Below are positions 264 through 47,222 of a stretch of DNA of 64,000 nt, in pieces. The notes below the pieces were generated by a model. It was not told where the DNA came from. It searched no databases and saw only the letters and a program-made list of their open reading frames with translations. The stretch is from Parahoeflea alexandrii (GTDB lineage Bacteria; Pseudomonadota; Alphaproteobacteria; Rhizobiales; Rhizobiaceae), in assembly GCF_024105735.1 (NCBI RefSeq), contig NZ_JAAAML010000006.1, forward strand, positions 1 to 64,000, given 5' to 3'. Made by a program: the position numbers and the translations under genes. Position 1 is the stretch's first letter, and every line of letters starts with the position of its first letter.

Positions 264-1508
264 CGAGCCCCTGAACTTCCTCCTCATTTTGGTAGAGTCC
301 ATCACAGATCAGGAGACGGACGAATGAAGCGTTAACGGTTCACGGAAGAACAGATAATCGAGATACTGAAGGAGCAGGAGGCGGGCGCGAAGACAGCCGA
401 TGTCTGCCGCAAGCACGGCATCTCGGACGCAACCCTCTACAAATAAGGCGAAGTTATGGCGGCATGGAGGTGTCCGATGCCCGCAAGCTGAATGCGCATG
501 AGGACGGGAATGCCAAGCGCAAGAAGCTTCTCGCTGTGACCATGTTGGACAATGCGATCCTGAAGGATGGAGCCTAAAAGAAATGGTGACGCCCCTCTCA
601 GCGGCGCTCCGCTTGTCTGCCGGCAATGGATGTGAAGCTGGATGCGGTGGCTCATGTCTGTGCGCAGCATGGGGTGAGCCAGCGTCGGGCGTGCGAGGTG
701 TTGTCGGTTGATCGGTCGAGCATGCGATATCATAGCGTTCGGTCTGACGATGCATCCATTCGTGAGGCGATGAAGAAGGTGGCTGCTGAGCGCCGCCGCT
801 TCGGCTATCGCCGCATCCACGTCTTGAGCGATCGGCAGGGGATCGTCATGAACCTGAAGAAGCTCAGGCATTTCTATTGGAATGAGAAGCTGACCTTGCG
901 CAAACGCGGCGCCCGCAAGCGGGCCTTGGGAACGAGGTGTCCCCTAGCTCTGCCCTCGCGCCGCAATGAGCGCTGGAGCCTGGACTTCGTCAGCGATGCC
1001 TTCACGGACGGCCGAGGCTTCCGTGTTCTGGTCGTCGTCGACGACTTTACCCGCGAATGCCTGTGCCTTGTCACCGATACATCCCTGTCGAGCGCTTGGG
1101 TTGCCCACGAGCTGGACAGTCTGATCGCCAGGCGGGTAAGCCCAAGACGATCGTCTCCCACAATGGCGCGGAGATGACCAGCATGGCCATCCTCAAATGG
1201 CGCCAAGAGACCAAGGTCGAATAGCACTACATCGCCCCCGGTAAGCCGATGCAGAACGGCTTCGTCGAAAGCTTCAACGACAGCTTTCGCGATGAGTGCC
1301 TCAACGAGCCCTGTTCTCGTCGCTCGCCCAAGCCCGCGCCGCCATTACCGCATTGAAGGAGGATTACAACCGAAATAGACCGCACTCATCGCTGGGCAAT
1401 ATTACGCCCAGCGAGTTCGCAGGGAGAATGGCTATGGAAAAACAGGCCGCATAAGGTCAGATTGAAAACCGAAGACTCTCCCGAAAACTGGTTGGAAGTT
1501 GGGTCTCA
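264..1508 (+). mobile_element. decayed IS3-family insertion sequence
   Basis: Imperfect terminal inverted repeats lie at about 264-298 and 1475-1508. Both share AACTTCC, a TTTT block and AGAGT in the same order, and the right end finishes in TCA, as is usual for IS3-family ends. Between them are the remains of an orfA/orfB transposase. No clear target-site duplication is visible. The element is immobile by itself because the transposase is broken at several points. It sits just upstream of hydantoinase module 1 and may mark how the left edge of the island was rearranged. Confidence 0.7.
324..1454 (+). pseudogene. IS3-family transposase orfA/orfB pseudogene
   Basis: From ATG 324 the reading matches an IS3 orfA N-terminus (RFTEEQIIEILKEQEAG, then a helix-turn-helix), but it is stopped at codon 4 (TAA 333-335) and again at TAA 444-446. 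OrfB resumes at 626 with the usual regions: REAMKKVAAERRRFGYRRIH, then the rve/DDE core with WSLDFVSDAF. The frame is lost near 1130. In the restored frame the second catalytic aspartate of the usual SDNG motif is His (CAC at 1159-1161) and a tryptophan codon has become TAG (1222-1224). The ESFN glutamate region follows at about 1262-1300, then another frameshift, and HSSLGNITPSEFA ends at 1454. It is a dead remnant of an IS407-like transposase. Confidence 0.8.
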
Positions 1509-1785: not shown

Positions 1786-2670
1786 ATGGGAACGAGCTAC
1801 GGAGGCATGGGGATCGAGCGCACCGAATCCGGTCACCAGTTCTTACCAATCGGAGAGGCTGCACAGCTTCTCGGGTTGAGCCGGATCCGCTTACGCGAAG
1901 CAATCACGAAAGGATTGCTGTCCGCCCGCCGAGACAACGAAGGCCACCTTCGGGTGGACCTGAGCACTTTGCCGAAAGATTTCGACGCCCGGCTGACAAG
2001 AGAAAAGGCTCAACCCGGCGAGCTGCTTGAAACCCTTTTTGACGAAATCGAAGAGCTACAATTTCATGTGGCTGGCCGCGATGCTGATATCGAGCGGCTG
2101 ACCTCGCTTCTTGAACGCCAGGACGCGACGCTCGAGCGATCGCTGGAGCTCAACGAACGCGGCGCGGTAGCCACGTCTCCAAACCACATCGCAAAAGACG
2201 GCAGCGCCAGCGCTCTGGCTGATGTCTCGGAGCGCGCATTTGTGTTGCTCGACGATGTTGCCGACCGTCTCGAAACCGCAATGGCTCAAAACGACAAGTT
2301 CCGCCATCTGGTAGAGCGGGCACTCGACCTGTCGGAACGTGCCGCATCGGGTTCCGGTGACAAGATCGAAGAGCTGTCCGGAGCTGTGGAGCGAGCGCTG
2401 AACCTGTTGGACCGCTCGTTGCAGGAAGGTGAAACCAAAAGCGAGGCAGCCACACGATTGACCGAGTTGCTGGACCGCGCGCTGACCACAAGCCAGCAGC
2501 TGGAACAGCAGGTCCAGAACAAGGTTGAAGTGATCAGTCGTCAGGAAGAGACGGTGGGAAAACTGCTTGGCATTTCCGAGCGGGCGGTCGGTCTTGCCGG
2601 CAGTGCACAGCAGCGCCCATGGCGATGGCTGAACTGGTTTACAGGAAGACGGATGAATTCAGGCAATTGA
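1786..2670 (+). CDS. helix-turn-helix DNA-binding protein with long coiled coil
   Basis: The protein has 294 residues. Residues about 18-60 look like an excisionase/MerR-type winged helix: PIGEAAQLLGLSRIRLREAI, then a GHLRVDL wing. Residues about 70-275 are predicted coiled coil rich in Glu, Leu and Arg, with a recurring degenerate unit (LERSLELNERG, VERALDLSERA, VERALNLLDRS, LTELLDRAL, LGISERAVG). A short Trp-rich tail (WRWLNWF) ends the protein. It lies 43 bases upstream of hyuA1 on the same strand and is probably cotranscribed. The family is not recognised; a DNA-binding regulator or a scaffold is inferred. The start is uncertain: ATG 1786 has no good ribosome site, and ATG 1807 has GGAGG only one base away. 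Confidence 0.7.
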   Translation: MGTSYGGMGIERTESGHQFLPIGEAAQLLGLSRIRLREAITKGLLSARRDNEGHLRVDLSTLPKDFDARLTREKAQPGELLETLFDEIEELQFHVAGRDADIERLTSLLERQDATLERSLELNERGAVATSPNHIAKDGSASALADVSERAFVLLDDVADRLETAMAQNDKFRHLVERALDLSERAASGSGDKIEELSGAVERALNLLDRSLQEGETKSEAATRLTELLDRALTTSQQLEQQVQNKVEVISRQEETVGKLLGISERAVGLAGSAQQRPWRWLNWFTGRRMNSGN

Positions 2671-2713: not shown

Positions 2714-4909
2714 ATGAACAGCACCGACGATTTGATCAAACGTTATGAAGACCGACTTGCCGCATTCGAGGCGCGCTTGCGCCGCATGGAAGCAGGCACC
2801 GGCCCTGTGCCGCAACTGCGCTCCCAAGCCCGTGCAGGCGGCGGACTGCGCCTGGGTGTCGATGTCGGCGGCACCTTCACGGACCTGCTGTTGCTTGATG
2901 AAAAGAATGGCCGCACCTTTACCGCCAAGGTGCCCTCGACGCCGTCCGACAGTTCGATCGGTGTTCTCAACGGCATTGAGAAGATCTGCCGCGAGGCTGG
3001 GATCGAGCCCAGAGAGATCACCGAAGTGATGCACGGCACGACCGTTGCAACGAACACGGTGCTTACGAGTTCTGGCGCTCTGGTCGGACTGGTGACGACC
3101 AAGGGCTACCGGGACGTGCTTCAGATCGCGCGGTCTTACGTTCCGGGCGGCCTGGGTGGTTGGGTGATCTGGAACAAGTCCGCGCCTCTGGCGCCGCTGG
3201 AATATACAATCGAGGCCGAAGAACGCATGGATGCCAACGGAACGGCAATCGTTCCGCTGGATGAGAAGGCGATCCGCAAAAGCCTGAAGTCGCTGCTCAA
3301 CAGCGGCATTGAGGCGCTTACGATTGCTCTCTTCAACTCCTATGCCAATGACGCCCATGAACTGCGGATTGCAGAGATCGCGCGGGAGATCGCGCCTGAT
3401 ATTCCGGTTTCGACATCGGCATCGATCATGCCGGAAATGTACGAGTACGAGCGGACCGAAACCACGGTCGTCAATTCCTATGTCCGGCCGGTGGTGTCGA
3501 AGTATGTCTCCAACCTGCAAAAGGAACTGCAGCAGCGCATGGGAGACGTCATGTTGCAGATCCTGCGCTCGGATGGCGGACTATCATCGGCACAGCTGGC
3601 GATGGACCAGCCGGTGAACCTTCTAATGTCGGGTCCCGCTGGCGGCGTTTCTGGCGCGCTCTGGATTGCCAAGCAGGCAGACGTCAAGAACCTGCTCACA
3701 TTCGACATGGGTGGGACGTCGACCGATGTGGCGCTGATCGAGAATTCGATCGCCCGGACAAGGCGCGAGACCCGTGTCGCCGATGTCACGGTCCGGGCGC
3801 CGTCGATCGACGTGCGAACTGTCGGCGCCGGCGGCGGCTCCATTGCCTATGTCCCGGAGCTGACAAAGGCACTGCGTGTCGGGCCGCAGTCGGCGGGAGC
3901 GGTTCCCGGCCCCTCGGCTTACAACAAGGGCGGCGAACAGCCCACCGTGACGGACGCCAACGTGGTGCTCGGATATCTTCCCTCCGACGCCAAGCTGGGC
4001 GGCGACATGGAGATCAGCCGCGACCTCGCGGTCAAGTCGGTGAGCGGGATCGCCGATGCATTGTCGATATCCGTCGAGGAAGCCGCCGAAGGCATCATCA
4101 AGATCGTCAACGAGAACATGTGCGGCGCGCTCCGCCTGGTCTCAGTCGAACAAGGCTATGATCCGCGCGAATTTGCGCTGATGGGCTTTGGCGGAGCCGG
4201 CCCGCTGCATGTCAATGCGCTGGCCAAGCTGATCAATTCATGGCCGGCGATCATTCCGCCCGGTCCCGGCGTTCTCTGCGCCTATGGCGACGCGACCACG
4301 CGGTTGCGCAACGAGGCAAGCCAGACCTTTGTAACCAGGATCTCCGACACCTCGGACCGGAAAATCGGCGACATGCTCGAGGCTTTGCAGAAAAGTGCGG
4401 CGGAAGCCCTGAGCGAGGAGGGCGTTGCACCCGAGGAGCAGGACGCCTTCTACCAGATCGACATCCGCTATCGCGGGCAGGGCATGAAGCTGACGATAAA
4501 CATATCGCCGGAAGACTTCGCGCGTGATGGGCTCGCCGGCGTTGCAGAGCGCTTCGACAAGGAGCACGAACAGCTCTTCACCTTCGCGCTTGACGCCGAC
4601 CACGAACTGGTCGGCCTGCGAACCGTGGTTCAGGGTGCTGAAAAGAGCTTCATTGCACCTGGCCGAGGCAAGGCAGGCACAGATGCATCGGGCGCCCGTG
4701 TCCAATCCACCAAGCTTTACACCGATGGCAAATGGCGCGACGCGCATATCTACGATCGCGGCAAGCTCAATCCCGGAAACCGGATCGACGGACCTGCGGT
4801 GCTGACGGAAATGGATTCAACGTCGCTGATCCTGCACGATCATGTCGGCATCGTCGACCCGGTCGGCAATGTGCTGATCTGGCCCGCAAATCACAAAAAC
4901 GCTCGCTGA
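2714..4909 (+). CDS. hyuA: hydantoinase/oxoprolinase subunit A (HyuA family), module 1, with N-terminal coiled coil
   Basis: This 731-residue protein matches the full HyuA family, which together with HyuB hydrolyses or carboxylates cyclic amides and ketones at the cost of ATP. Visible motifs are the actin-fold phosphate loop GVDVGGTFTD (about residue 50), HGTTVATNTVL, FDMGGTSTDVALI and GFGGAGPLHVNALAKL. Before the first motif is an extra 40-45 residue extension with a heptad segment (YEDRLAAFEARLRRME, residues 11-26) that HyuA2 lacks. A closely similar segment begins the permease at 9608. hyuB1 starts 12 bases downstream. The substrate cannot be read from sequence; N-methylhydantoin, oxoproline, lactam or imide are all possible. 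Confidence 0.9.
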   Translation: MNSTDDLIKRYEDRLAAFEARLRRMEAGTGPVPQLRSQARAGGGLRLGVDVGGTFTDLLLLDEKNGRTFTAKVPSTPSDSSIGVLNGIEKICREAGIEPREITEVMHGTTVATNTVLTSSGALVGLVTTKGYRDVLQIARSYVPGGLGGWVIWNKSAPLAPLEYTIEAEERMDANGTAIVPLDEKAIRKSLKSLLNSGIEALTIALFNSYANDAHELRIAEIAREIAPDIPVSTSASIMPEMYEYERTETTVVNSYVRPVVSKYVSNLQKELQQRMGDVMLQILRSDGGLSSAQLAMDQPVNLLMSGPAGGVSGALWIAKQADVKNLLTFDMGGTSTDVALIENSIARTRRETRVADVTVRAPSIDVRTVGAGGGSIAYVPELTKALRVGPQSAGAVPGPSAYNKGGEQPTVTDANVVLGYLPSDAKLGGDMEISRDLAVKSVSGIADALSISVEEAAEGIIKIVNENMCGALRLVSVEQGYDPREFALMGFGGAGPLHVNALAKLINSWPAIIPPGPGVLCAYGDATTRLRNEASQTFVTRISDTSDRKIGDMLEALQKSAAEALSEEGVAPEEQDAFYQIDIRYRGQGMKLTINISPEDFARDGLAGVAERFDKEHEQLFTFALDADHELVGLRTVVQGAEKSFIAPGRGKAGTDASGARVQSTKLYTDGKWRDAHIYDRGKLNPGNRIDGPAVLTEMDSTSLILHDHVGIVDPVGNVLIWPANHKNAR

Positions 4910-4921
4910 GGAAAGTCCACC

Positions 4922-6808
4922 ATGGCCGCCACAATTGTCGAGACAAACACCAAGCCGTTCAACCGGGTTCAGGTCGATCCGATCACCCTGGACATCGTCG
5001 AAAACGCCTTGAGAAATGCGCGAACCGAAATGGACGCCGTGCTGTTTAGAACCGCGATGTCACCCGGCATCCGCGAGCAGCACGACGCCTTTCCGATGAT
5101 CGCCAACCAGGAAGGCAAGATGGTGGTCGGCCAGTTCGGCTCCTTCCTCTACGGCTTCATCAACGGCTATGACGGCACAATCGAGGATGGCGACATCTTC
5201 ATCACAAACGACCCTTATTCCTGCAACGGCGCCGTCAGTCATCTCAATGACTGGCTGTTGATGATGCCAATCTTTCATGAAGGCAAGCTGGTCAGCTGGG
5301 CCGCTATGTTCGGTCACATGACGGATGTCGGCGGCAAGGTTCCCGGTTCGCTGCCGACCGACGCCAAGATGATCTTCGAGGAGGGCATCATCATCCCTCC
5401 GACCAAGATCTACCGGAAGGGACAGCTCGCTGACGAGATCCTCAACATTCTTCTGCACAACACCCGCATGCCGGAATGGAACAAGTCCGACTTTTTCGCC
5501 ATCATTGCCGCGTTGCGGCTGGCGGAGCGACGGGTTCGCGAGAACATCGACCGCTTCGGCGCCGACTATTACATTTCCGCCATGTGGGACATGCTCGACC
5601 GCAACAGGGCGGCGATGAGCGCGATTATCCAGATGATCATTCCCGAAGCCGTCGATGGAAAGAAGGCCTCTTTCGAGGACTGGATAGATGATGATGGCAT
5701 GGGCAACGGTCCCTACAAGATTGCCTGCTCGCTGCACCGCGAGGGCGAGATCGCCTATTTCGATTTCTCCGAAAGCGATCCGCAGAGTTTTTCGTCGATC
5801 AATTTCCTGCTGAACGAAGAAATGTTCAAGATGTTCTTCGGGGCATTCACCATCAATCTGTTCGATCCGCAGATCCTGTTCAATGACGGCTTTTACGACC
5901 TGATCGAGGTTCACATCCCGGAAGGTTGCATTCTCAAACCGAAGAAGCCTGCGGCGCTCTCCTGCCGGACCCACATGCTGGGCCGGATCTTCGACCTGAT
6001 GGGCGGATTGCTGGGGCAGGGAGCGCCAGATGCGCTCAACGCTGCCGGCTTCTCCGACAGCCCGCACTTCATGTATTCCGGCTTCAACACCCAGGGCGAA
6101 TGGTACCAGCTTTTCCAGATCGGCTTCGGTGGCGTGCCGGGCCGTCCGGCCGGCGACGGCCCTGACGGGCATTCCATGTGGCCCGCCTTCACCAATGTTC
6201 CCAACGAATTTCTTGAGGCCTATTTTCCTTTGCGCATCCGTGAATACGCAACCATCCCCGACAGTGGCGGAGCCGGCTTGCATCGCGGCGGCAACGGGAT
6301 CGTGATTGCCTACGAAATGATGGAGAAGGGCGAAATTTCAATCCACGACGATCGCTGGCTGACCTATCCGTGGGGTGTAAATGGTGGCGAGCCGGGAATG
6401 CGCTCGACCAAGCGGCTGGTCCGCAAGACCGGCGAGGAGGAGAACATTCCGTCGAAATGCGATCGTGTCGCGGTCGAACCAGGTGACATGCTTTACTTCA
6501 ACACATGGGGGGGCGGCGGCTGGGGCGACCCGCTGGCGCGTGATGCCGAGCTGGTGGCGATGGACGTCAAACGCGGGCTTGTGACGCCGGAAGGCGCCAG
6601 GCGCTACGGCGTCGTGATCGAAGACGGCGAGGTCGATACGCGGGCCACCAGAAAGCTGCGGGAGAAAATGGCAGCCGACCAGGTCAAGCCGCTGTTCAAT
6701 CGCGGTTTCGAGTCGATCGAGGAGTTGAAGGGGCGGTGCAAGAAGGAGACCGGTTTCGAGCCTCCTGTGGCGCCGGTGTTTCGTCGCTTTGCCCAGGCAG
6801 CGGAATAG
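4922..6808 (+). CDS. hyuB: hydantoinase/oxoprolinase subunit B (HyuB family), module 1
   Basis: This 628-residue protein is full length for HyuB, the partner of HyuA in ATP-dependent N-methylhydantoinase, 5-oxoprolinase, acetone or acetophenone carboxylase and caprolactamase-type enzymes. Family hallmarks are DPITLDIVENALRNAR near the start, SPGIREQHDAFPM, NDPYSCNGAVSHLNDW, GHMTDVGGKVPGS and a Gly-rich C-terminal segment (WGGGGWGDPL). The start ATG 4922 has GAGGAAAG in position. It follows hyuA1 by 12 bases, so the two form one unit. The C-terminal tail (KPLFNRGFESIEELKG) is slightly longer than in HyuB2. Confidence 0.92.
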   Translation: MAATIVETNTKPFNRVQVDPITLDIVENALRNARTEMDAVLFRTAMSPGIREQHDAFPMIANQEGKMVVGQFGSFLYGFINGYDGTIEDGDIFITNDPYSCNGAVSHLNDWLLMMPIFHEGKLVSWAAMFGHMTDVGGKVPGSLPTDAKMIFEEGIIIPPTKIYRKGQLADEILNILLHNTRMPEWNKSDFFAIIAALRLAERRVRENIDRFGADYYISAMWDMLDRNRAAMSAIIQMIIPEAVDGKKASFEDWIDDDGMGNGPYKIACSLHREGEIAYFDFSESDPQSFSSINFLLNEEMFKMFFGAFTINLFDPQILFNDGFYDLIEVHIPEGCILKPKKPAALSCRTHMLGRIFDLMGGLLGQGAPDALNAAGFSDSPHFMYSGFNTQGEWYQLFQIGFGGVPGRPAGDGPDGHSMWPAFTNVPNEFLEAYFPLRIREYATIPDSGGAGLHRGGNGIVIAYEMMEKGEISIHDDRWLTYPWGVNGGEPGMRSTKRLVRKTGEEENIPSKCDRVAVEPGDMLYFNTWGGGGWGDPLARDAELVAMDVKRGLVTPEGARRYGVVIEDGEVDTRATRKLREKMAADQVKPLFNRGFESIEELKGRCKKETGFEPPVAPVFRRFAQAAE

Positions 6809-6831
6809 GAAGGACAGGTGGCCGGTCTAGA

Positions 6832-6853
6832 CCCGAACAATGGGCGGTTCGGG
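6832..6853 (+). other. intercistronic stem-loop between hyuB1 and the binding-protein gene
   Basis: CCCGAAC (6832-6838) pairs with GTTCGGG (6847-6853) around an eight-base loop. No T-run follows, so it is unlikely to be a strong terminator. It stands 83 bases before the binding-protein start. Such hairpins often mark processing sites that let the binding protein be made in excess of its neighbours; that role is inferred. Confidence 0.35.
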
Positions 6854-6935
6854 CACCACGTCTGGCAAGTCTCTACCGAAGATGCAGTCACATAAAGGCA
6901 TACAAGACGTCATTTTTAACAAGGAGAACTGACCA

Positions 6936-8024
6936 ATGAAGAACCTGATACTTCCGACCTTGGGCGGATTGCTCATGCTCGCGGTTCCCGCGAAGGCTGA
7001 CATGGCCGCTGCCGAGGCCCTGATCGCAAAACACAGCCAGCTGCCCACGTTCGAAGCGCCCGGGCCTGCCTTCGACGCCAAGGCGTGCATGAAGGACAAG
7101 AAGATGTTTGTCATACCCTTGACCAACGCCAATCCCTTCAACGCCGCGATCAGCCAGGGCTTTGTCGATGCAGCGGCCATGGTGGGTTTCGAATTGCGCG
7201 ACTGGGAAACCCAGATGGATCCGGCCGGCTGGATTCAGGGCATCAACACGGCAACGGCAGAAGGCTTTGACCTGATCGACCTGCAGGGCGGTCTGCCGCC
7301 CGAGTTTCTGGTTCCTCAGATCACCGAGGCCCGTACCGCCGGTGTGAAAGTCACAGCGACCCACAACTGGGATGCGACGACCCAGACGGTGCCCGACTTC
7401 ATGGATGGTGCCGCCAACACCGACTATGTGACAGTCGGCGAAATCATTGCCGCATGGGCCATGGTGAAAACCGGCGGCAAGGTGAATGCCATCGTGCTCG
7501 GTCCAGACGAGATCACGCCGACAGCCCCGTTGCGCGATGCGATCATCGGTTATCTGAAAGACAACTGCCCTGACTGCAAGACGCAGTACATCAACGTTCC
7601 TGTAAACGACTGGGCAACCAAGACCCAGCCGGCCGTGCAGAATGCGCTGCTCGCTGATCCGACCATCAACTATGTGCTGCCGGTCTACGATTCGATGTCG
7701 CAGTTCATCGTCCCTGCCATCCAGATCGCGGGTTCGTCGGCAAAGATTGTCTCCTACAACGGCACACCCTTCGTGCTCGACATGATGCGCGACGGCGATA
7801 TTGTAGAGATGAATGTCGGCGAGAGCCTTGGCTGGGTCGGCATGGCCGGAACAGACGCGAATATGCGTCTTCTGTGCGGCCTTGATCCGGTCACCAAGCT
7901 GAACACGCCTGCCTATATCTTCTCGGACGAGAATGTGGCCACAGCCGGCAACCCTGCCACATTCAATGATGGATACGGCGATGTCCACAGGGCCGGGTTC
8001 GCCAAGCTCTGGGGCGTTGAGTGA
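6936..8024 (+). CDS. CUT2-type ABC transporter periplasmic substrate-binding protein, module 1
   Basis: The protein has 362 residues, starting with a signal peptide (positive N-end, hydrophobic stretch, cleavage near AKA-DM) and a good ribosome site AAGGAG. The body has the two-lobed periplasmic-binding fold of the ribose/type-I class. Features shared with the module 2 binding protein are PFDAKAC-like AFDAKAC, NCPDC, VYDSMSQFIVPA and NVGESLGW. Three conserved Cys-containing sites suggest a disulfide. It probably delivers the HyuAB substrate to the transporter encoded next. The stop overlaps the GTG start of the ATPase gene. Despite sugar-type homology, the gene context argues for a non-sugar ligand; this is inference. 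Confidence 0.85.
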   Translation: MKNLILPTLGGLLMLAVPAKADMAAAEALIAKHSQLPTFEAPGPAFDAKACMKDKKMFVIPLTNANPFNAAISQGFVDAAAMVGFELRDWETQMDPAGWIQGINTATAEGFDLIDLQGGLPPEFLVPQITEARTAGVKVTATHNWDATTQTVPDFMDGAANTDYVTVGEIIAAWAMVKTGGKVNAIVLGPDEITPTAPLRDAIIGYLKDNCPDCKTQYINVPVNDWATKTQPAVQNALLADPTINYVLPVYDSMSQFIVPAIQIAGSSAKIVSYNGTPFVLDMMRDGDIVEMNVGESLGWVGMAGTDANMRLLCGLDPVTKLNTPAYIFSDENVATAGNPATFNDGYGDVHRAGFAKLWGVE

Positions 8025-9592
8025 GATCAGAAACTGCAGGGCGCGTCGGGGAAACCGACGCGCTCGACATCCGGCATCTTTCCAAGTATTTCGGCGGTGC
8101 GGTTGCGCTTGACGACGTGTCGCTGACTGTCCGGCGCGGGGAGGTGCATGGACTGCTCGGCTCCAACGGGTCGGGCAAATCCACGCTCATCAAGGTCCTT
8201 GCCGGGTTTCATACGCCCGAACCGGGGGCCAAGATCAGCCTCTACGGAAAGAGCGTGCCGCTTCCCATTCCCGGCGCAAAGGTCAGGGAGCTGGGACTGG
8301 CCTTCGTGCATCAGCATCTGGGCCTCATTCCGTCGCTCAGCGTCACGGAAAATCTTCAAATCGGTTCGCTTTCCACCGGCCAGGACTGGGCGATCAATTG
8401 GGGTGCCGCCCATCGCGAGGCGGCCGCCATCTTTGCCCGTTTCGGCCTCGCTCTCGATCCCAAGGCGCCTGTCGGCACGCTATCTGCTGTTCAGCAGGCG
8501 CTGCTTGCGATCGTGCGCGCCTATGAGGATATTCGCAAAGCGACCGAGAACCATGTCGACCGGCCGGGTGTCCTCGTGCTCGACGAACCGACACCGTTTC
8601 TGCCAAGGGCGGGGGTCGAACAGCTTTTCGGGCTGGTGCGGCAATGCACGGAGTTGGGGGCGAGCGTCATTTTCGTCAGTCATGACGTGGACGAGGTGCG
8701 CGAGATTACCGATCGTGCAACAGTGCTGCGCGACGGTCACCTGATCGACACGGTGGTCACCGCAGATACCAGTCACGAGGCCTTCGTCGAGCGTATCATC
8801 GGCAGGACCATGGACGTTTATGCCGGCAGCAACAAACAGCCGCGGACCTCAACGCCTTCGGTGGCCGTGAGCAACCTTTCCGTCGCTGGCGTCGGCCCCC
8901 TGGGATTCGATCTTGCGGAAGGCGAAATCCTGGGTTTGACCGGCTTGATCGGATCTGGTTTCGACAATGTTCCGGCCCTCCTCTACGGCGCCCGAAAGGG
9001 AACCACCGGCCAGATGACAATCGACAACCAGAGCTTTGACCTTGCTGCGTTCAATCCCATCAAGGCGCTGGAGGCTGGAATTGCCTATCTGCCTGCCGAT
9101 CGCCTGGGCGAGGCCGGAATAGGCTCGCTTTCTGTTGGCGACAATGTGTCCATGCCGGTCTATGGCCAGTTGCGCAGCGCTCTGGGACTGACGGACCGGC
9201 AAATCGGCCGTCATGCGCGAAAACTCGGCCAGGGGGCGGGCGTGAAGCCCAACGTTCCCTCAATGTCGCTTGCCGCACTCTCCGGCGGAAACGCGCAGAA
9301 AGCCCTGATGGCCAAATGGTTGCAGATCGGGCCACGGCTTCTGTTGCTCGATGAGCCGACCCAGGGTGTCGATGTCGGTGCGCGGCAGCAGATCTGGGAT
9401 GCCCTCGACAGGACTGCACAGAGCGGGGCGGCGATCCTGGTCTCGTCTACCGACTACGAGCAATTGGCGCAGCTCTGCCATCGTGTGCTTATTTTCGCGC
9501 GTGGGCAGATCGTGGCCGAACTGTCAGGCGCTGACCTGACCAAGGACCTGATTGCCGAACATTGCTACCGTTCGATGCCTCAGCTTGCATAA
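8021..9592 (+). CDS. CUT2-type ABC transporter ATPase with two nucleotide-binding domains, module 1
   Basis: This 523-residue protein follows the RbsA/MglA plan of two fused ATPase domains. Domain 1 has Walker A GSNGSGKST (47-55) and Walker B VLVLDEPT, but its signature reads LSAVQQ rather than LSGGQ, and about ten extra residues lie between signature and Walker B. Domain 2 has the usual degenerate Walker A (GLIGSGFD), a good signature LSGGNAQKA and Walker B LLLLDEPTQGVD. The start is GTG 8021, overlapping the previous stop as GTGA. It powers uptake through the permease at 9608. The module 2 ATPase shares the odd signature and insert. Confidence 0.88.
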   Translation: MRSETAGRVGETDALDIRHLSKYFGGAVALDDVSLTVRRGEVHGLLGSNGSGKSTLIKVLAGFHTPEPGAKISLYGKSVPLPIPGAKVRELGLAFVHQHLGLIPSLSVTENLQIGSLSTGQDWAINWGAAHREAAAIFARFGLALDPKAPVGTLSAVQQALLAIVRAYEDIRKATENHVDRPGVLVLDEPTPFLPRAGVEQLFGLVRQCTELGASVIFVSHDVDEVREITDRATVLRDGHLIDTVVTADTSHEAFVERIIGRTMDVYAGSNKQPRTSTPSVAVSNLSVAGVGPLGFDLAEGEILGLTGLIGSGFDNVPALLYGARKGTTGQMTIDNQSFDLAAFNPIKALEAGIAYLPADRLGEAGIGSLSVGDNVSMPVYGQLRSALGLTDRQIGRHARKLGQGAGVKPNVPSMSLAALSGGNAQKALMAKWLQIGPRLLLLDEPTQGVDVGARQQIWDALDRTAQSGAAILVSSTDYEQLAQLCHRVLIFARGQIVAELSGADLTKDLIAEHCYRSMPQLA

Positions 9593-9607
9593 GGGATTTC
9601 AACTTTC

Positions 9608-10681
9608 ATGAGCACAGGCCAGACATCCGATCCAATTGCGGCCTACGAGAAGCGCATAGCGGCGCTCGAAGCGAAACTGAACACTCTCGAAGAGAGCGTG
9701 ATTTCGCGGACTGTGCGTGAATCCGAGACATTCGACTGGAAAACATGGGCGGAGCGGTTCGGACTGCTCATCGCATGGGGTGTGATGATCCTCATTCTCG
9801 GTGCCTTCAAGCCGGACCAGATGTTTGCCTGGAACTCCTATGCGAGCATGTTCGGCTCCAATGCCATGGTCGTGGTGTTGACCCTGGCGCTGATGATCCC
9901 GTTGACGACCGGCGATTTCGACCTTTCGGTCGCCAGCGTCATGGGGCTGAGCTCGATGCTGCTGGCGGTGCTCAACGTCAAGATGGGCATGCCGATCGGC
10001 GGCGCCATTGTCTTTGTTCTCGCGGCGGGCGCGATTGTCGGATTGATCAACTCCTTCTTCATTCTCTATTTCGGAGTGCACTCGTTGATCGTGACACTGG
10101 GCACGGGCTATTTCATCAATGGCGTGATCCTGTGGGTGTCGAACTCCAACACCATCGCCGGTGTATCGATGGATCTGGTCAAGGCAGTCATCCTCACTCG
10201 CCTGTTCGGGATTCCGATCGGGTTTTACTACGCCTTGGCACTGTCGGTTCTGGTCTGGTACGTGTTCCAGCACACGAGCCTTGGCCGACGTCTGCTGTTC
10301 GTCGGGCGGGGGCGCGAGGTGGCGCGCCTGTCGGGCGTCAACGTCAACCGTGTGCGCACCGGAGCACTGGTGGCGTCGGGTGTCATCGCGGCGTTTGCGG
10401 GCGTTCTCTATACCGGTATGCGCGGGGCGTCTGACCCGTCATCGGCGCTGGCCTTCCTGCTCCCGGCCTTCGCTGCCGCGTTCCTCGGGTCAACCGCCAT
10501 CTATCCCGGCCGGTTCAATGCACCCGGCGCTTTCGTCGCTGTTTTCTTCCTCTCGACCGGCATCATGGGATTGAATTTCCTTGGCGTCGACAGTTTCGTG
10601 CAGAACCTGTTCTACGGTGGAGGCCTGGTGATCGCGGTCTCGATCTCACAACTGATCCGTGGCAGAAAACCGATGGATTAG
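9608..10681 (+). CDS. CUT2-type ABC transporter permease with N-terminal coiled coil, module 1
   Basis: This 357-residue inner-membrane protein of the RbsC family (BPD_transp_2) has about eight to ten hydrophobic segments from residue 55 on, the family motif VGRGREVARLSGVNV and a C-terminal TTxxPGRFN-like segment (TAIYPGRFNAPG). Ahead of the membrane part is an extra soluble segment with in-register heptads (YEKRIAALEAKLNTLE, residues 13-28). It resembles residues 11-26 of HyuA1, and the module 2 permease has no such segment. The gene starts 15 bases after the ATPase stop. Docking of HyuA1 onto the transporter through these helices is a testable inference. Confidence 0.88.
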   Translation: MSTGQTSDPIAAYEKRIAALEAKLNTLEESVISRTVRESETFDWKTWAERFGLLIAWGVMILILGAFKPDQMFAWNSYASMFGSNAMVVVLTLALMIPLTTGDFDLSVASVMGLSSMLLAVLNVKMGMPIGGAIVFVLAAGAIVGLINSFFILYFGVHSLIVTLGTGYFINGVILWVSNSNTIAGVSMDLVKAVILTRLFGIPIGFYYALALSVLVWYVFQHTSLGRRLLFVGRGREVARLSGVNVNRVRTGALVASGVIAAFAGVLYTGMRGASDPSSALAFLLPAFAAAFLGSTAIYPGRFNAPGAFVAVFFLSTGIMGLNFLGVDSFVQNLFYGGGLVIAVSISQLIRGRKPMD

Positions 10682-38198: not shown

Positions 38199-40256
38199 AT
38201 GAGACTAGGCGTCGACGTTGGTGGCACGTTCACCGATCTTCTGCTGCATGATGAAAAGACGCAGCGGACCTTTGAGGCCAAAACGCCTTCAACTCCCGAA
38301 GACCAGTCCATCGGCGTCGCCGCAGGCGTCAAGTTGATCTGTGAGAAGGCCGGGATTTCGCCGTCCGACATCGAGTTGATCCTGCATGGCACGACAGTCG
38401 CGACCAATGCTGTGCTTGAAGGCAAGGGTGCGCGGGTTGGCCTGCTCGTGACCGAAGGATTCGAGTACACGCTGCACCTGGCCAAAGCCTGGACGCCCGG
38501 TCCGCTGTTCGGCTGGATCAACATGGAGAAGCCTGATCCGCTGGCGTCACTTGCCGATACGCGCGGCATTCCCGAACGGATGAATGCGCGCGGCGAAGTC
38601 GTCCGCGAACTCGATATCGACAAGGCAACCGCGTTGATCGACGATCTCTGCAGCTCCGGGATAGAGGCGCTGACGATTTCCCTGATGCATTCCTACGCCA
38701 ATGCCGAGCATGAGAGAGCGCTGGGAGCCATCGTGGCGGAACGCTTCCCGGATATTCCGGTGTCGCTCTCCTCCGACATCCTGCCCGAATTCCGCGAATA
38801 TGACCGGGCCATCACCACGGTGATGAACGACTATGTGCGGCCGATCATGAAGCGTTACCTGTCGCGGATCGAAGACCGGCTCAAGCAGGAAGGCGTCAGC
38901 GCGCGGCTGCATATCGTGCGTTCGGACGGCGGATTGATGAGTGCGGCTGCGGCGTCGGAACGGCCGGTGCACACAGTGCTTTCAGGGCCGGCCGGTGGCG
39001 TGACCAGCACGGTGATGCTGTCGCGGCGCTCAGGCATTTCCAAGCTTCTGGCCTTCGACATGGGCGGCACATCAACCGATGTGTCGGTGATTATCGACGG
39101 CGAAGCGACGATCTCGCGTTCCACCGAAGTCGGCATGTTCCCGGCCAAGGTGCCGACACTGGATGTGCGCAGCGTCGGCGCGGGCGGTGGCTCCATTGCC
39201 GACGTATCGGAACTCACCGGTTCGCTGCGTGTCGGTCCGCGCAGTGCCGGAGCCAACCCTGGGCCGGTGTCTTATGGGCGCGGCGGGACGGAACCAGCCG
39301 TCAGTGACGCCAACGTGGTTCTCGGCTATCTCCCGCCGGTGCTTCTGGGTGGCGACATGTCGCTCGATGTCGAAGGTGCCCGCAAGGCAGTCGCCGGCAT
39401 CGGTGAGACGCTCGGTCTGTCGCCGGAAGATGCAGCCAAGGGCATCATCGACATCGCCAATGAAGTCATGCTCGGTGCGTTGCGGGTGATCACCGTGCAG
39501 CGCGGGCTCGATCCGCGCGAGTTCGGCATTGTTGCCTTTGGAGGTGCGGGTCCTCTGCATGCCAACGCCATCGCGGAGCTGCTCGGATGCTATCCGGTAA
39601 TGGTGCCGCCCAATCCGGGCGTGCTTTCGGCGCTCGGCTTTCTCGAAGCGGATTTCAAGAACGAGTTCGTCCAGACCTATATCCGCTCCACGGTTGGACT
39701 TGACCCGGCCGAAGTATGGACTCGCTTCGAGGAGCTTGAAGGCAAGGCCAAGACCTGGCTCAAGGAGCAGGAGGTCTCGGCGGACGATGCCTCGATCCTC
39801 TACACGCTGGATCTGCGCTACGAGCAGCAGGGTTTCGAAGTCTCGGTGGATGTGAGTGCCCATCATGTGCGCCAGAAAGGCGGAATGGAGCCGATCCTGG
39901 CTGACTACCACGCATTGCATGAACGCCTTTACGGCGTGCGCTTCACGGTTCCGGTGGAACTGGTCGCCTTGCGGGTGGTGGCCCGCGGCGCAACGCCTCC
40001 GGTGAATGAAAAGGCGCCGGGTGGCGAAGGCGGAGAGATTTCCGCCGCGGTGATGGAAACCCGACCGGCCTATTTCGACGGCGCCTGGCATGACACGCCC
40101 CATTATGACCGCAACAAGCTCGGTGTTGGTTCCCGTGTCGAGGGGCCGGCCATCATTCGGCAATACGACACCACCACTGTGCTTCTGCCCGCCCACTACG
40201 CTGAAATCGACGAGCACGGCAACGTGCTCATCTGGCCAATTTCGAAGGGAAAGTGA
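38199..40256 (+). CDS. hyuA: hydantoinase/oxoprolinase subunit A (HyuA family), module 2
   Basis: The start ATG 38199, with AGAGGAA upstream, gives 685 residues that begin almost directly with the phosphate-binding motif RLGVDVGGTFTDLLLHDE. Other hallmarks are LHGTTVATNAVLEGKGA, FDMGGTSTDVSVI and AFGGAGPLHANAIAELLG. Compared with HyuA1 it lacks the 40-residue coiled-coil extension. It is the first gene of module 2, divergent from the leuC operon, with a LacI-type site in the promoter. Substrate unknown; cyclic amide, imide or oxoproline-like compounds are most likely. Confidence 0.9.
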   Translation: MRLGVDVGGTFTDLLLHDEKTQRTFEAKTPSTPEDQSIGVAAGVKLICEKAGISPSDIELILHGTTVATNAVLEGKGARVGLLVTEGFEYTLHLAKAWTPGPLFGWINMEKPDPLASLADTRGIPERMNARGEVVRELDIDKATALIDDLCSSGIEALTISLMHSYANAEHERALGAIVAERFPDIPVSLSSDILPEFREYDRAITTVMNDYVRPIMKRYLSRIEDRLKQEGVSARLHIVRSDGGLMSAAAASERPVHTVLSGPAGGVTSTVMLSRRSGISKLLAFDMGGTSTDVSVIIDGEATISRSTEVGMFPAKVPTLDVRSVGAGGGSIADVSELTGSLRVGPRSAGANPGPVSYGRGGTEPAVSDANVVLGYLPPVLLGGDMSLDVEGARKAVAGIGETLGLSPEDAAKGIIDIANEVMLGALRVITVQRGLDPREFGIVAFGGAGPLHANAIAELLGCYPVMVPPNPGVLSALGFLEADFKNEFVQTYIRSTVGLDPAEVWTRFEELEGKAKTWLKEQEVSADDASILYTLDLRYEQQGFEVSVDVSAHHVRQKGGMEPILADYHALHERLYGVRFTVPVELVALRVVARGATPPVNEKAPGGEGGEISAAVMETRPAYFDGAWHDTPHYDRNKLGVGSRVEGPAIIRQYDTTTVLLPAHYAEIDEHGNVLIWPISKGK

Positions 40257-44596: not shown

Positions 44597-46224
44597 TGGT
44601 TCTGTCGCCGGATCACACTGTACCCGATCCGGCAACCAGGCCGGGAGCGCGCAACCCGCTCCCGGTTCTGTCTGTTGCCAATCTCTCCAAGTCTTTCGGT
44701 GGCGCGAAAGCGTTGCACAATGTCTCCTTCGACGTCATGCCCGGCGAAGTTCACGGATTGCTTGGCAAGAATGGGTCTGGCAAATCGACGCTGGTGAAGA
44801 TCCTTGCCGGTTTCCACGCGCCGGATGACGGCGGAACGCTTACATTCAACGGCGAGCGGGTTTCCCTGCCACTCAAGGCCGGGGAGGGCCGCCGTCTCGG
44901 CATGGCCTTTGTCCACCAGAACCTGGGGCTGGTGCCTTCGCTGACCGTGCTCGAAAACCTCAGGCTGGTCGAGCTTACCAGGAACGGCAAGGCATTCATC
45001 AATTGGCGGGCAGAAACAGCCGCGGCCCAACAGGCATTGAAACGCTTCGGACTCAATATCGATCCGGAGGAGCGGGTTGACAGGCTGACCCCTGTGCAAC
45101 GGGCGCTGCTGGCCATCGTGCGGGCATTCGAGGAGATCGAGGCGGCTCGTGCAATCACCGGTAGGCCGGGTCTGGTCCTGCTTGACGAGCCCACCCCGTT
45201 CCTGCCGGCGAGCGGTGTTGCCCAGCTGTTCGAGCTGGTGCGTTCGATCACGCGTCTGGGGTCGAGCGTGATTTTCATTTCGCACGATATCGACGAAGTC
45301 ATGGAAATCACCGACCGGATCACGGTGCTGCGCGACGGAGAACAGTCAGGCGAACTGGCGCGGGCTGACGCGACACACGAGAAGATCGTCGAGATGATTG
45401 TCGGTCAGAGTATCTCGCGCGGGCAGGGCAGAAAGTCCGGCACCAACAGCTTCCCGGTCTATGCGCGATTTGAAGGTCTTTCCGACAAGATGCTGCAGCC
45501 GTCAGATCTGCATGTCGGAAAGGGTGAAATTCTCGGACTGACCGGGTTGATAGGGTCGGGCTACGAGGAAGTGCCCTATCTTGCATTCGGCGCGCGCAGC
45601 GGCGCGTCAGGACGGATCACTATCGAGGACGGCCCCACCTTTGACCAGTCGACACTGACACCGGCGGCGGCAATCGAGCGCGGTTTTGCGCTGTTGCCGG
45701 GAGACCGGCATGGTGAAAGCGGGGTCGACAGTCTTTCCATCGTCGACAACATGTTCCTGCCCGACATCGGTCGGTTCTTCAGAGGCGGCTTGATGCGTAA
45801 CGGCGCCATGGTGCGCGAGGCGCGGGAACTCGGCAAGGCTTACGAGGTTCGCCCCAACGACCCGGCACTGAAGCTTTCGGCGCTGTCGGGCGGCAATGCG
45901 CAAAAGGTGCTGATTGCACGCTGGATGAACCGGTCACCGCTCCTGCTTCTGCTTGATGAGCCGACGCAAGGCGTGGATGTCGGAACCCGCCAGCAGATCT
46001 TTGCAGCGCTGCGCAAAGCCGCAACGGAAGGCATGTCGATCATCTGCGCCAGTTCCGAGGCGGAACAGCTGGCTGAAATCTGCGACCGCGTTCTGGTCTT
46101 CGCAAGAGGCCGGATCTGCGATGAAATCACCGGTGAAAGGCTGACCAAGGAAGGCATATCCGAAGCCTGCTACGTCTCAGCCGGTCCCGCTTCCCAATCG
46201 AATCCCACGCCGCGAGTTGCTTGA
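44596..46224 (+). CDS. CUT2-type ABC transporter ATPase with two nucleotide-binding domains, module 2
   Basis: This 542-residue RbsA-like double ATPase has domain 1 Walker A GKNGSGKST (57-65) and Walker B LVLLDEPTPFLPASG. As in module 1, its signature is degenerate (LTPVQRALLAIVRAFE) and followed by about ten extra residues. Domain 2 has GLIGSGYEE, signature LSGGNAQKVLIARW and LLLLDEPTQGVDVG. The shared oddities mark the two transporters as one subfamily. Its stop overlaps the permease start. Confidence 0.88.
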   Translation: MVLSPDHTVPDPATRPGARNPLPVLSVANLSKSFGGAKALHNVSFDVMPGEVHGLLGKNGSGKSTLVKILAGFHAPDDGGTLTFNGERVSLPLKAGEGRRLGMAFVHQNLGLVPSLTVLENLRLVELTRNGKAFINWRAETAAAQQALKRFGLNIDPEERVDRLTPVQRALLAIVRAFEEIEAARAITGRPGLVLLDEPTPFLPASGVAQLFELVRSITRLGSSVIFISHDIDEVMEITDRITVLRDGEQSGELARADATHEKIVEMIVGQSISRGQGRKSGTNSFPVYARFEGLSDKMLQPSDLHVGKGEILGLTGLIGSGYEEVPYLAFGARSGASGRITIEDGPTFDQSTLTPAAAIERGFALLPGDRHGESGVDSLSIVDNMFLPDIGRFFRGGLMRNGAMVREARELGKAYEVRPNDPALKLSALSGGNAQKVLIARWMNRSPLLLLLDEPTQGVDVGTRQQIFAALRKAATEGMSIICASSEAEQLAEICDRVLVFARGRICDEITGERLTKEGISEACYVSAGPASQSNPTPRVA

Positions 46225-47222
46225 TGACCGACATAGTGAAAACCGCCGACATGACCAAGACCCCGACCAATTATGCCCGGCAGTTCGAACGGGTTGCGCT
46301 GCTTCTGGTGTGGGCGTTGACCATCGCGCTGTTTACCTTTCTCATCCCCAACAACTTTCTCAACTGGGGCAATTTCTCGATCATGTTCGCCTCATACGCG
46401 CCCGCAGCATTGCTGGCGCTGGCGATCATCATTCCGCTGACTGCGGGCGACTATGATCTGTCGGTTGGAGCGACCCTGACCCTTTCGGCTTCCACCATCG
46501 GCGTGCTCAATGTGTGGCAGCAAATGCCGATCGGCTGGGTTCTGGTCATCGTCCTGCTGATGGGCTTGGGTATCGGGTTGTTCCACTCGCTGTTCATCAT
46601 CTATTTCCGGGTGCCGTCGCTTGTGGTGACGCTTGGCTCGACATCGCTGATGAGCGGTGTCGTCCAGTTGATCACCAATTCCTCCACCATCGGCGGGATC
46701 GACAACAGCCTGATCATGGCCGCCGTCGGTTACAGGCTGTTCGGCATCCCCTATGCCTTCTACTACGCTTTGGCGGCAGCATTGGTGATGTGGTACATCT
46801 TCGACTTCATGCCACTTGGACGAAAATTGCTTTTTGTCGGGCGGGGCAGGGAGGTGGCGAGACTCAACGGGATCTCGGTCAACAAGGTTCGTGTCGGCGC
46901 TTTGTGCATGTCGGCCGTCCTGGCGTCCGCCGCAGGCATTCTCTATGCAGGCGTGCTAGGGTCGGCAGATCCCTATTCGGGTCTCAACTATCTCCTGCCT
47001 GCCTTTGCAGCGGCGTTTCTCGGTGCGACCACGATCCAGCCCGGGCGCTTCAACCCTTGGGGAACGATCGTTGCGGTCTATTTTCTCGCAACCGGCATCA
47101 CGGGGCTTTCCATGCTCGGGATTCCGCTGTGGGTGACCAACGTTTTCAACGGTGGAGCGTTGATCCTCGCCGTGACGATTTCGCAGATCACACGTGGTCG
47201 CGAAGCGTCCGACATAGGCTGA
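46224..47222 (+). CDS. CUT2-type ABC transporter permease, module 2
   Basis: This 332-residue RbsC-family membrane protein has the conserved loop VGRGREVARLNGISVNKVRVG and TTIQPGRFNPWG near the C-end. ATG 46224 overlaps the ATPase stop; a TTG three bases earlier is in frame. The N-terminus is short before the first membrane segment (ALLLVWALTIALF) and has no coiled coil, unlike the module 1 permease. Confidence 0.88.
   Translation: MTDIVKTADMTKTPTNYARQFERVALLLVWALTIALFTFLIPNNFLNWGNFSIMFASYAPAALLALAIIIPLTAGDYDLSVGATLTLSASTIGVLNVWQQMPIGWVLVIVLLMGLGIGLFHSLFIIYFRVPSLVVTLGSTSLMSGVVQLITNSSTIGGIDNSLIMAAVGYRLFGIPYAFYYALAAALVMWYIFDFMPLGRKLLFVGRGREVARLNGISVNKVRVGALCMSAVLASAAGILYAGVLGSADPYSGLNYLLPAFAAAFLGATTIQPGRFNPWGTIVAVYFLATGITGLSMLGIPLWVTNVFNGGALILAVTISQITRGREASDIG

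What the first reader, a model, noticed from the sequence alone, without database searches (positions are those of the whole stretch)
2714..9691. Matching coiled-coil tags on HyuA1 and its ABC permease
HyuA1 residues 5-26 and permease residues 8-28 share D-x-I-x-x-Y-E-x-R-(L/I)-A-A-(F/L)-E-A-(R/K)-L-x-x-(M/L)-E with identical heptad phase (hydrophobic residues spaced 3-4-3-4-3). Neither is part of the normal HyuA or RbsC fold, and both are missing from the module 2 paralogues. Two unrelated folds from one operon carrying the same terminal helix suggests direct docking of a cytoplasmic hydrolase on its transporter, giving substrate channelling. I know of no described HyuA-transporter complex of this type.
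Basis: partly seen in the sequence, partly recalled or inferred. Interest (0 to 1): 0.78.

Follow-up and report, generated by a model that had tools for sequence, protein, structure and literature searches.

The report
Shared helix tags, hydrolase and importer
A cytoplasmic ring-opening enzyme and the membrane channel that probably imports its substrate start with the same short coiled-coil helix, and in the related bacteria examined the two helices come and go together, which suggests that the enzyme is tethered to the importer.

Summary
HyuA1 (residues 6-26) and the CUT2-type permease of its operon (8-28) share an N-terminal three-heptad helix. A profile made only from permease tags picks HyuA1 out of the whole genome (E 1.2e-4, next 0.17); the reverse holds (1.5e-5, next 0.24). 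Both proteins are tagged in 25 operons, neither in 13, only one in 0 of 38. Three gene orders occur. Two HyuAs nested in the tagged clade lack the tag: one lies beside a TRAP transporter, and the other genome has no related permease. The motif resembles designed parallel coiled coils, many of them trimers. Best explanation: a mixed parallel coiled coil tethers the ATP-dependent hydrolase to its importer. Binding is inferred, not shown. Identical tags could also homo-oligomerise, own partners match no better than shuffled ones (p 0.36), and independent events are few (three supported contrasts, all concordant). Tethering is likely; channelling is not shown. No description appeared in the paper listings searched.

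The parts
2714..4909 (+). hyuA1: Hydantoinase/oxoprolinase A subunit, 731 aa, tagged
   Evidence: Pfam PF05378/PF01968/PF19278; N-methylhydantoinase 7hk5 E 4e-132 from residue 46
2729..2791 (+). HyuA1 coiled-coil tag, residues 6-26
   Evidence: AlphaFold2 helix 4-26, modest confidence
2792..2845 (+). HyuA1 linker, residues 27-44, predicted disordered
   Evidence: pLDDT under 50 for residues 24-42; linker length 16-34 aa across 25 HyuAs
4922..6808 (+). hyuB1: Hydantoinase B subunit, untagged
   Evidence: Pfam PF02538
6936..8024 (+). periplasmic substrate-binding protein of the importer, untagged
   Evidence: Pfam PF13407
8021..9592 (+). double-domain ABC ATPase (RbsA type), untagged
   Evidence: Pfam PF00005, two stretches
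9608..10681 (+). CUT2-type permease (RbsC type), 357 aa, tagged
   Evidence: Pfam PF02653; nearest solved folds are the type II importers PsaBC and BtuCD, weak match
9629..9691 (+). permease coiled-coil tag, residues 8-28
   Evidence: AlphaFold2 helix 9-40, pLDDT above 90 for residues 11-30
9692..9736 (+). permease linker, residues 29-43, largely helical in the model
38199..40256 (+). hyuA2 (module 2), untagged internal control
   Evidence: 46% identical, starts MRLGVDVGGTF
46221..47222 (+). permease 2 (module 2), untagged internal control
   Evidence: 52% identical, no tag match

Best explanation
The two N-terminal helices are matched docking tags. Each is a three-heptad amphipathic helix joined to its protein by a linker, and both lie on the cytoplasmic side (for the permease this is inferred). 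Tags of HyuA and permease zip into one parallel mixed coiled coil, with g-Arg/Lys to e-Glu salt bridges, and so tether the ATP-dependent HyuAB hydrolase to the importer that delivers its substrate. Because a type II importer has two permease copies and the motif is of the trimer kind, the most natural bundle is two permease tags plus one HyuA tag. Shown: the tags, their heptad pattern, their exclusive similarity to each other, their co-occurrence and co-absence, and purifying selection on them. Inferred: that they bind each other, the stoichiometry, and the benefit (faster hand-over of a scarce substrate, or keeping the enzyme at the membrane).
For: Reciprocal genome-wide best non-self hits and exclusivity among 14,684 ORFs. 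Tag scores are bimodal: permeases 15.9-43.0 bits (30 rows) against at most 4.8 (72 rows); HyuAs 19.5-48.6 (25 rows) against at most 3.4 (67 rows); most tagged rows were in the training set, but L154 and L159 were not and score 15.9-22.0. Both or neither in 38 of 38 hyuAB-CUT2 operons (25 both, 13 neither). Three gene orders: hyuAB-SBP-ATPase-permease; hyuAB divergent from the importer genes (L090, L092-L095); SBP-ATPase-permease-hyuAB (L154, L159). Co-absence inside the tagged HyuA clade: G020 (locus L218; TRAP DctM/DctP genes next to hyuAB, convergently transcribed) and G1231 (L220; no related permease at E 1e-30 and no tag match better than 0.33 in the whole genome), tree. Heptads: a and d 97-100% hydrophobic except the permease's first a (53%); e acidic 77-100%; the two inner g positions Arg/Lys 96-100%. 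Strict R-hxxhE in at least one heptad of 30 of 30 permease and 22 of 25 HyuA tags. The profile's top PDB hits are designed coiled coils, many named trimers. Pooled dN/dS 0.16 (HyuA tag) and 0.33 (permease tag) in clade 1. Helices in AlphaFold2.
Against: Both tags have the same self-complementary charge pattern, so homo-association is as possible as hetero-association. Own-partner tags are no more alike than shuffled ones (25 operons, p 0.36; within clade 1 p 0.68, within clade 2 p 0.92), so there is no sign of pair-specific co-evolution. A single origin of the tag is not rejected (AU p 0.076 permease; 0.69 HyuA), so independent events are few: three supported contrasts on the HyuA tree, all concordant, sign test p 0.25, and one on the permease tree. 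Similar short coils occur on unrelated porin-like proteins in 5 of 289 genomes, so the motif itself can arise convergently. The HyuA helix has only modest model confidence (pLDDT about 42-60).
Confidence: 0.62

Rival explanations
1. Each tag serves its own protein: HyuA tags join HyuA to HyuA (linking HyuAB units into larger assemblies), permease tags stabilise the permease pair or cluster importers. Similarity is due to the limited alphabet of short parallel coiled coils.
For: The charge pattern is self-complementary in both tags, and such coils arise elsewhere, on porin-like proteins. No partner-specific matching.
Against: It does not explain why tags are present or absent together (0 of 38 discordant; absence in L218 and L220), nor why they resemble each other more than any other protein of the genome. 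In the related CapAB enzyme the two A subunits lie on opposite sides of a B-B core in a particle about 170 A long (PMC8453981 passages), so two HyuA tags of one such unit could hardly meet (inference).
Confidence: 0.2
2. Both tags dock on a third protein (a scaffold or a further enzyme), not on each other.
For: Same-type tags on two proteins would fit a common receptor (reasoning, no call).
Against: No third protein with a matching tag in 14,684 ORFs of 203 stretches or in the own genome. A dissimilar receptor is not excluded.
Confidence: 0.08
3. The tags were inherited together from one ancestral operon and have no joint function (for example each only helps folding or stability).
For: One origin is not rejected by the trees.
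Against: Purifying selection on the tags while linkers vary in length; the HyuA tag is missing in two lineages of the tagged clade that lack the tagged permease; the 49 permeases kept without hyuAB nearby and the HyuAs without a tagged permease lack tags.
Confidence: 0.1

Closest known systems
Hydantoinase/oxoprolinase A subunits (N-methylhydantoinase 7hk5/9h03, caprolactamase CapA 6yra, acetone and acetophenone carboxylase subunits)
   Same: Same fold family; E 4e-132 to 7hk5, TM-score 0.82 and 0.83 (query-normalised) to 9h03 and 6yra
   Different: The six solved relatives are matched only from HyuA1 residue 45-48 on, so tag and linker are outside the matched fold; a term search of the caprolactamase paper's main text found no 'transporter' and no 'coiled'
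CUT2/RbsC-type ABC permeases in a BtuC-like (type II) fold
   Same: Pfam PF02653; nearest solved folds PsaBC and BtuCD, TM-scores 0.4-0.5
   Different: The 72 other permease rows scored have no such N-terminal helix motif (at most 4.8 bits)
Docking domains of polyketide synthases (PMC9113145, start of abstract in the search listing only)
   Same: Short terminal segments that order partner proteins
   Different: Those join subunits of megasynthases; here one partner is a membrane permease and the other an ATP-dependent hydrolase, and the two tags are alike rather than a complementary pair (the last contrast is recalled)
Parallel short coiled coils with the R-hxxhE trimer motif (PMC3653964 and PMC5940361, passages; Kammerer 2005 seen only as cited there)
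   Same: g-Arg, a/d hydrophobic, e-Glu pattern; strict motif in 30/30 permease and 22/25 HyuA tags
   Different: The cases in the passages seen are homo-oligomers of one protein; [quoted passage not shown]

Membership tests
Hydantoinase/oxoprolinase A subunit | Hydant_A_N, Hydantoinase_A and C-terminal domains | tested here: met
   Pfam E 6.9e-50, 5.1e-91, 8.1e-13
CUT2-type ABC importer | BPD_transp_2 permease, double ABC ATPase, Peripla_BP_4 binding protein in one operon | tested here: met
Parallel coiled coil with R-hxxhE motif | hydrophobic a/d, Arg or Lys at inner g, Glu at e over at least two heptads | tested here: met
   25 HyuA and 30 permease tags; strict motif counts (second heptad strict in 2 of 30 permeases, where g is mostly Lys)
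Parallel coiled coil with R-hxxhE motif | measured three-stranded parallel assembly | not testable with these tools
   only similarity to designed coils, many named trimers
Docking domain pair (terminal tags that bind each other) | co-occurrence of both tags in partner proteins | tested here: met
   38 of 38 operons concordant; 70 of 70 HyuAs concordant
Docking domain pair (terminal tags that bind each other) | partner-specific sequence matching | tested here: not met
   own pairs 40.8 against 40.35 shuffled, p 0.36
Docking domain pair (terminal tags that bind each other) | physical binding of the two tags | not testable with these tools
   no paired prediction or bench data
Transport metabolon / substrate channelling | enzyme bound to its transporter with faster or protected substrate transfer | not testable with these tools
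   substrate unknown, no kinetics

The most novel reading that the evidence does not exclude
A bacterial ABC importer and an ATP-dependent ring-opening hydrolase form a lasting transport-and-process complex through a shared, exchangeable coiled-coil tag (two permease copies plus one HyuA). The tag is a transferable docking code that is dropped when the importer is lost or exchanged, and HyuA carries a different tag in a sister lineage (the W-type helix with an 82-131 residue linker).
Probability: 0.25. Interest if true: 0.85.

Novelty: new variant of a known kind. Interest (0 to 1): 0.7.

Why it matters
Physical coupling of ABC importers to the enzymes that use their substrates is often supposed but hard to show. 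Here a 21-residue tag, removable from either protein, with natural tag-less relatives as controls, makes the idea directly testable. If it holds, matched terminal tags could be used to predict other enzyme-transporter complexes from sequence, and the tags could serve as parts for building transport metabolons.

Tried and rejected
Chance similarity: a single-sequence search alone would have left this open (E 0.28); profiles settle it. A DNA-level cause (repeat, duplication) was not tested as such; pooled dN/dS of 0.16 and 0.33 argues for selection on the protein (clade 1 only, pairs not independent, silent sites near saturation). A third tagged protein in the loci: none. Pair-specific co-evolution of tags: looked for, not found. 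A second tag type on HyuA (W-type: L149-L153, L155, L158) was searched for a look-alike partner: no ORF outside HyuA better than E 6.9. Solved-structure search with the permease by sequence: no hit. Paired structure prediction: the tool takes one protein, and joining two proteins would be a changed sequence, so it was not tried. Charge counting for the permease N-terminus is not informative: 5 Lys/Arg but 8 Asp/Glu.

Limits of the survey: one search drops 15 of 102 permeases whose context was cut by contig ends or too short (5 tagged: L041, L045, L052, L053, L091; 10 untagged). Of the 49 kept without hyuAB, 10 have less than 5 kb on one side, and the permease of L182 (genome G020) was counted as without hyuAB although an untagged hyuAB lies about 11 kb away (L218). 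The window's two modules were assigned to their own hyuA by hand. In one search three HyuAs with cut N-termini (L148, L156, L157) and rows under 45% identity were left out and nine later rows added. Matches G1203 and G1242 were not fetched; the permease of G152 was not fetched with context. HyuAs of 34-42% identity and permeases of 30-40% were examined only in part. The class search with the permease profile at E 1e-4 found no further tagged operon; weaker tags such as those of L154 and L159 may be missed at that cut-off.
Full report
OBSERVATION. The operon is hyuA1-hyuB1-binding protein-ATPase-permease. HyuA1 residues 6-26 and permease residues 8-28 agree in 11 of 21 positions in the same heptad phase. 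Neither segment belongs to the matched fold. A second, paralogous module at 38-47 kb lacks it on both proteins.

CHANCE. With one sequence the match has E 0.28 in the own genome. Profiles built from one partner's tags only are far stronger: the permease profile finds HyuA1 at 1.2e-4 (next 0.17) and the HyuA profile finds the permease at 1.5e-5 (next 0.24). In 14,684 ORFs of 203 stretches no other kind of protein scores better than about E 0.4 with either profile. In 289 genomes of the class, 6 besides the own genome had a match at E 1e-4 or better: five are one porin-like type with the coil just after the apparent signal peptide, one is a stretch inside an unrelated 679-residue frame (kinds judged by eye, not by a database). 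So the motif can arise elsewhere, but rarely.

ANATOMY. In 25 HyuA and 30 permease tags, a and d positions are Ile/Leu/Met/Phe/Val/Tyr/Trp in 97-100% of sequences, except the permease's first a (53%). The three e positions are acidic in all HyuAs and in 93, 100 and 77% of permeases. The two inner g positions are Arg or Lys in 96-100%; the outer g positions are not charged in this way. The trimer motif R-hxxhE (PMC3653964 and PMC5940361, passages) is present in strict form in at least one heptad of 30 of 30 permease and 22 of 25 HyuA tags. The profile's best PDB hits are designed coiled coils, many named trimers. AlphaFold2 makes HyuA1 4-26 a helix of modest confidence followed by a disordered linker, and the permease 9-40 a helix with high confidence for residues 11-30. 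Linkers are 16-34 residues in HyuA and 14-23 in the permease (the L047 artefact left out). In clade 1, pooled dN/dS is 0.16 for the HyuA tag (18 sequences, 153 pairs) and 0.33 for the permease tag (17 sequences, 136 pairs), against 0.11 and 0.17 for 60-codon parts of the cores (153 and 36 pairs).

SIDE OF THE MEMBRANE. Counting helices in the model back from the basic loop 222-246, which by analogy with BtuC is the loop that touches the ATPase (recalled), puts the permease N-terminus in the cytoplasm. Charge counting does not help: the N-terminal 43 residues hold 5 Lys/Arg and 8 Asp/Glu. HyuA has no signal peptide by eye. Both tags can therefore meet (inference).

CO-OCCURRENCE. Of 102 permeases, 87 had usable context; 25 of these are tagged and all 25 sit with a tagged HyuA, and none of the 62 untagged ones does. 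Among the 38 that sit with hyuAB, 25 operons have both tags and 13 have neither. Among 70 HyuAs of 45% identity or more, 25 are tagged and all have a tagged permease; 45 are untagged and none has. Tagged pairs occur with hyuAB in front, divergent (L090, L092-L095) and behind the permease (L154, L159). All 31 non-window HyuA matches of the class search were fetched, some cut by contig ends.

JOINT ABSENCE INSIDE THE TAGGED CLADE. Two HyuAs of 77-79% identity nest inside a supported clade of 20 (SH-aLRT 100) whose other 18 members are tagged. They have no tag, not even when the frame is read upstream of the start. In G020 (L218) a TRAP transporter (DctM, DctP) lies next to hyuAB, on the other strand and convergent; the genome's best permease relative is of the untagged module 2 kind, and its best tag match anywhere is E 0.026, outside any permease relative listed. 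In G1231 (L220) the whole genome has no permease relative at E 1e-30 and no tag match better than 0.33. That the TRAP system took over the importer's role is inference.

HOW MANY EVENTS. The tagged permeases form three well supported clades (22, 6 and 2 rows) among untagged ones, but one clade is not rejected (p 0.076), nor is one clade of tagged HyuAs (p 0.69, before L218 and L220 were added). Independent contrasts number three on supported branches of the HyuA tree, all concordant, too few for a significant sign test (p 0.25), and one on the permease tree. The pattern is without exception in the sequences examined but rests on few evolutionary events.

MECHANISM. The tags most likely form a mixed parallel bundle that holds HyuAB at its importer. 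The related caprolactamase CapAB is an (alpha-beta)2 particle about 170 A long with the CapA subunits on opposite sides of the CapB core (PMC8453981, passages), so HyuA tags within one unit are unlikely to pair, whereas the two permease copies of one importer bring two tags together. A 2:1 trimer follows naturally but is inference. Against pair-specific docking, own partners are no more alike than shuffled ones. Homo-oligomerisation is the main rival.

LITERATURE. Searches of the open library for HyuA with coiled coil and transporter (3 papers), ABC transporter with enzyme channelling and coiled coil (2 papers), HyuA and N-methylhydantoinase (20 of 180 listed), transport metabolon terms (12 of 835 listed), ABC importer with channelling (12 of 55 listed) and hydantoinase with sugar permease or N-terminal extension (1 paper) showed no such complex in the listings. 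Most listed papers were not opened, and subscription papers are mostly not held.

SUBSTRATE. Unknown. The window also encodes an isochorismatase-type hydrolase and an arylmalonate decarboxylase/hydantoin-racemase-like protein, which would suit cyclic ureides, as a guess.

Noticed in passing
L149-L153, L155, L158 (N-terminus of HyuA): A sister group of HyuAs (65-69% identical) carries a different N-terminal amphipathic helix (W-F-D-S-x-L pattern) and then a Pro/Ala-rich linker of 82-131 residues, without a CUT2 importer in the stretch fetched; two conserved membrane proteins of unknown role occur in 6 of the 7 loci each. Possibly a second, different docking system.
   Followed up: partly
L211, L212, L213, L215, L216: Porin-like outer membrane proteins (by eye) carry a very similar short coil just behind the apparent signal peptide, an independent occurrence of the motif.
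   Followed up: partly
L218:4316-13485: Near an untagged clade-1 hyuAB in genome G020 lie two sets of TRAP transporter genes (DctM and DctP twice).
   Followed up: partly
window 1786-2670: The gene directly upstream of hyuA1 has weak HTH_17/MerR matches at its start and a long remainder that looks coiled by eye.
   Followed up: no
window 626-1177: A transposase-like reading frame (by eye) upstream of the operon.
   Followed up: no
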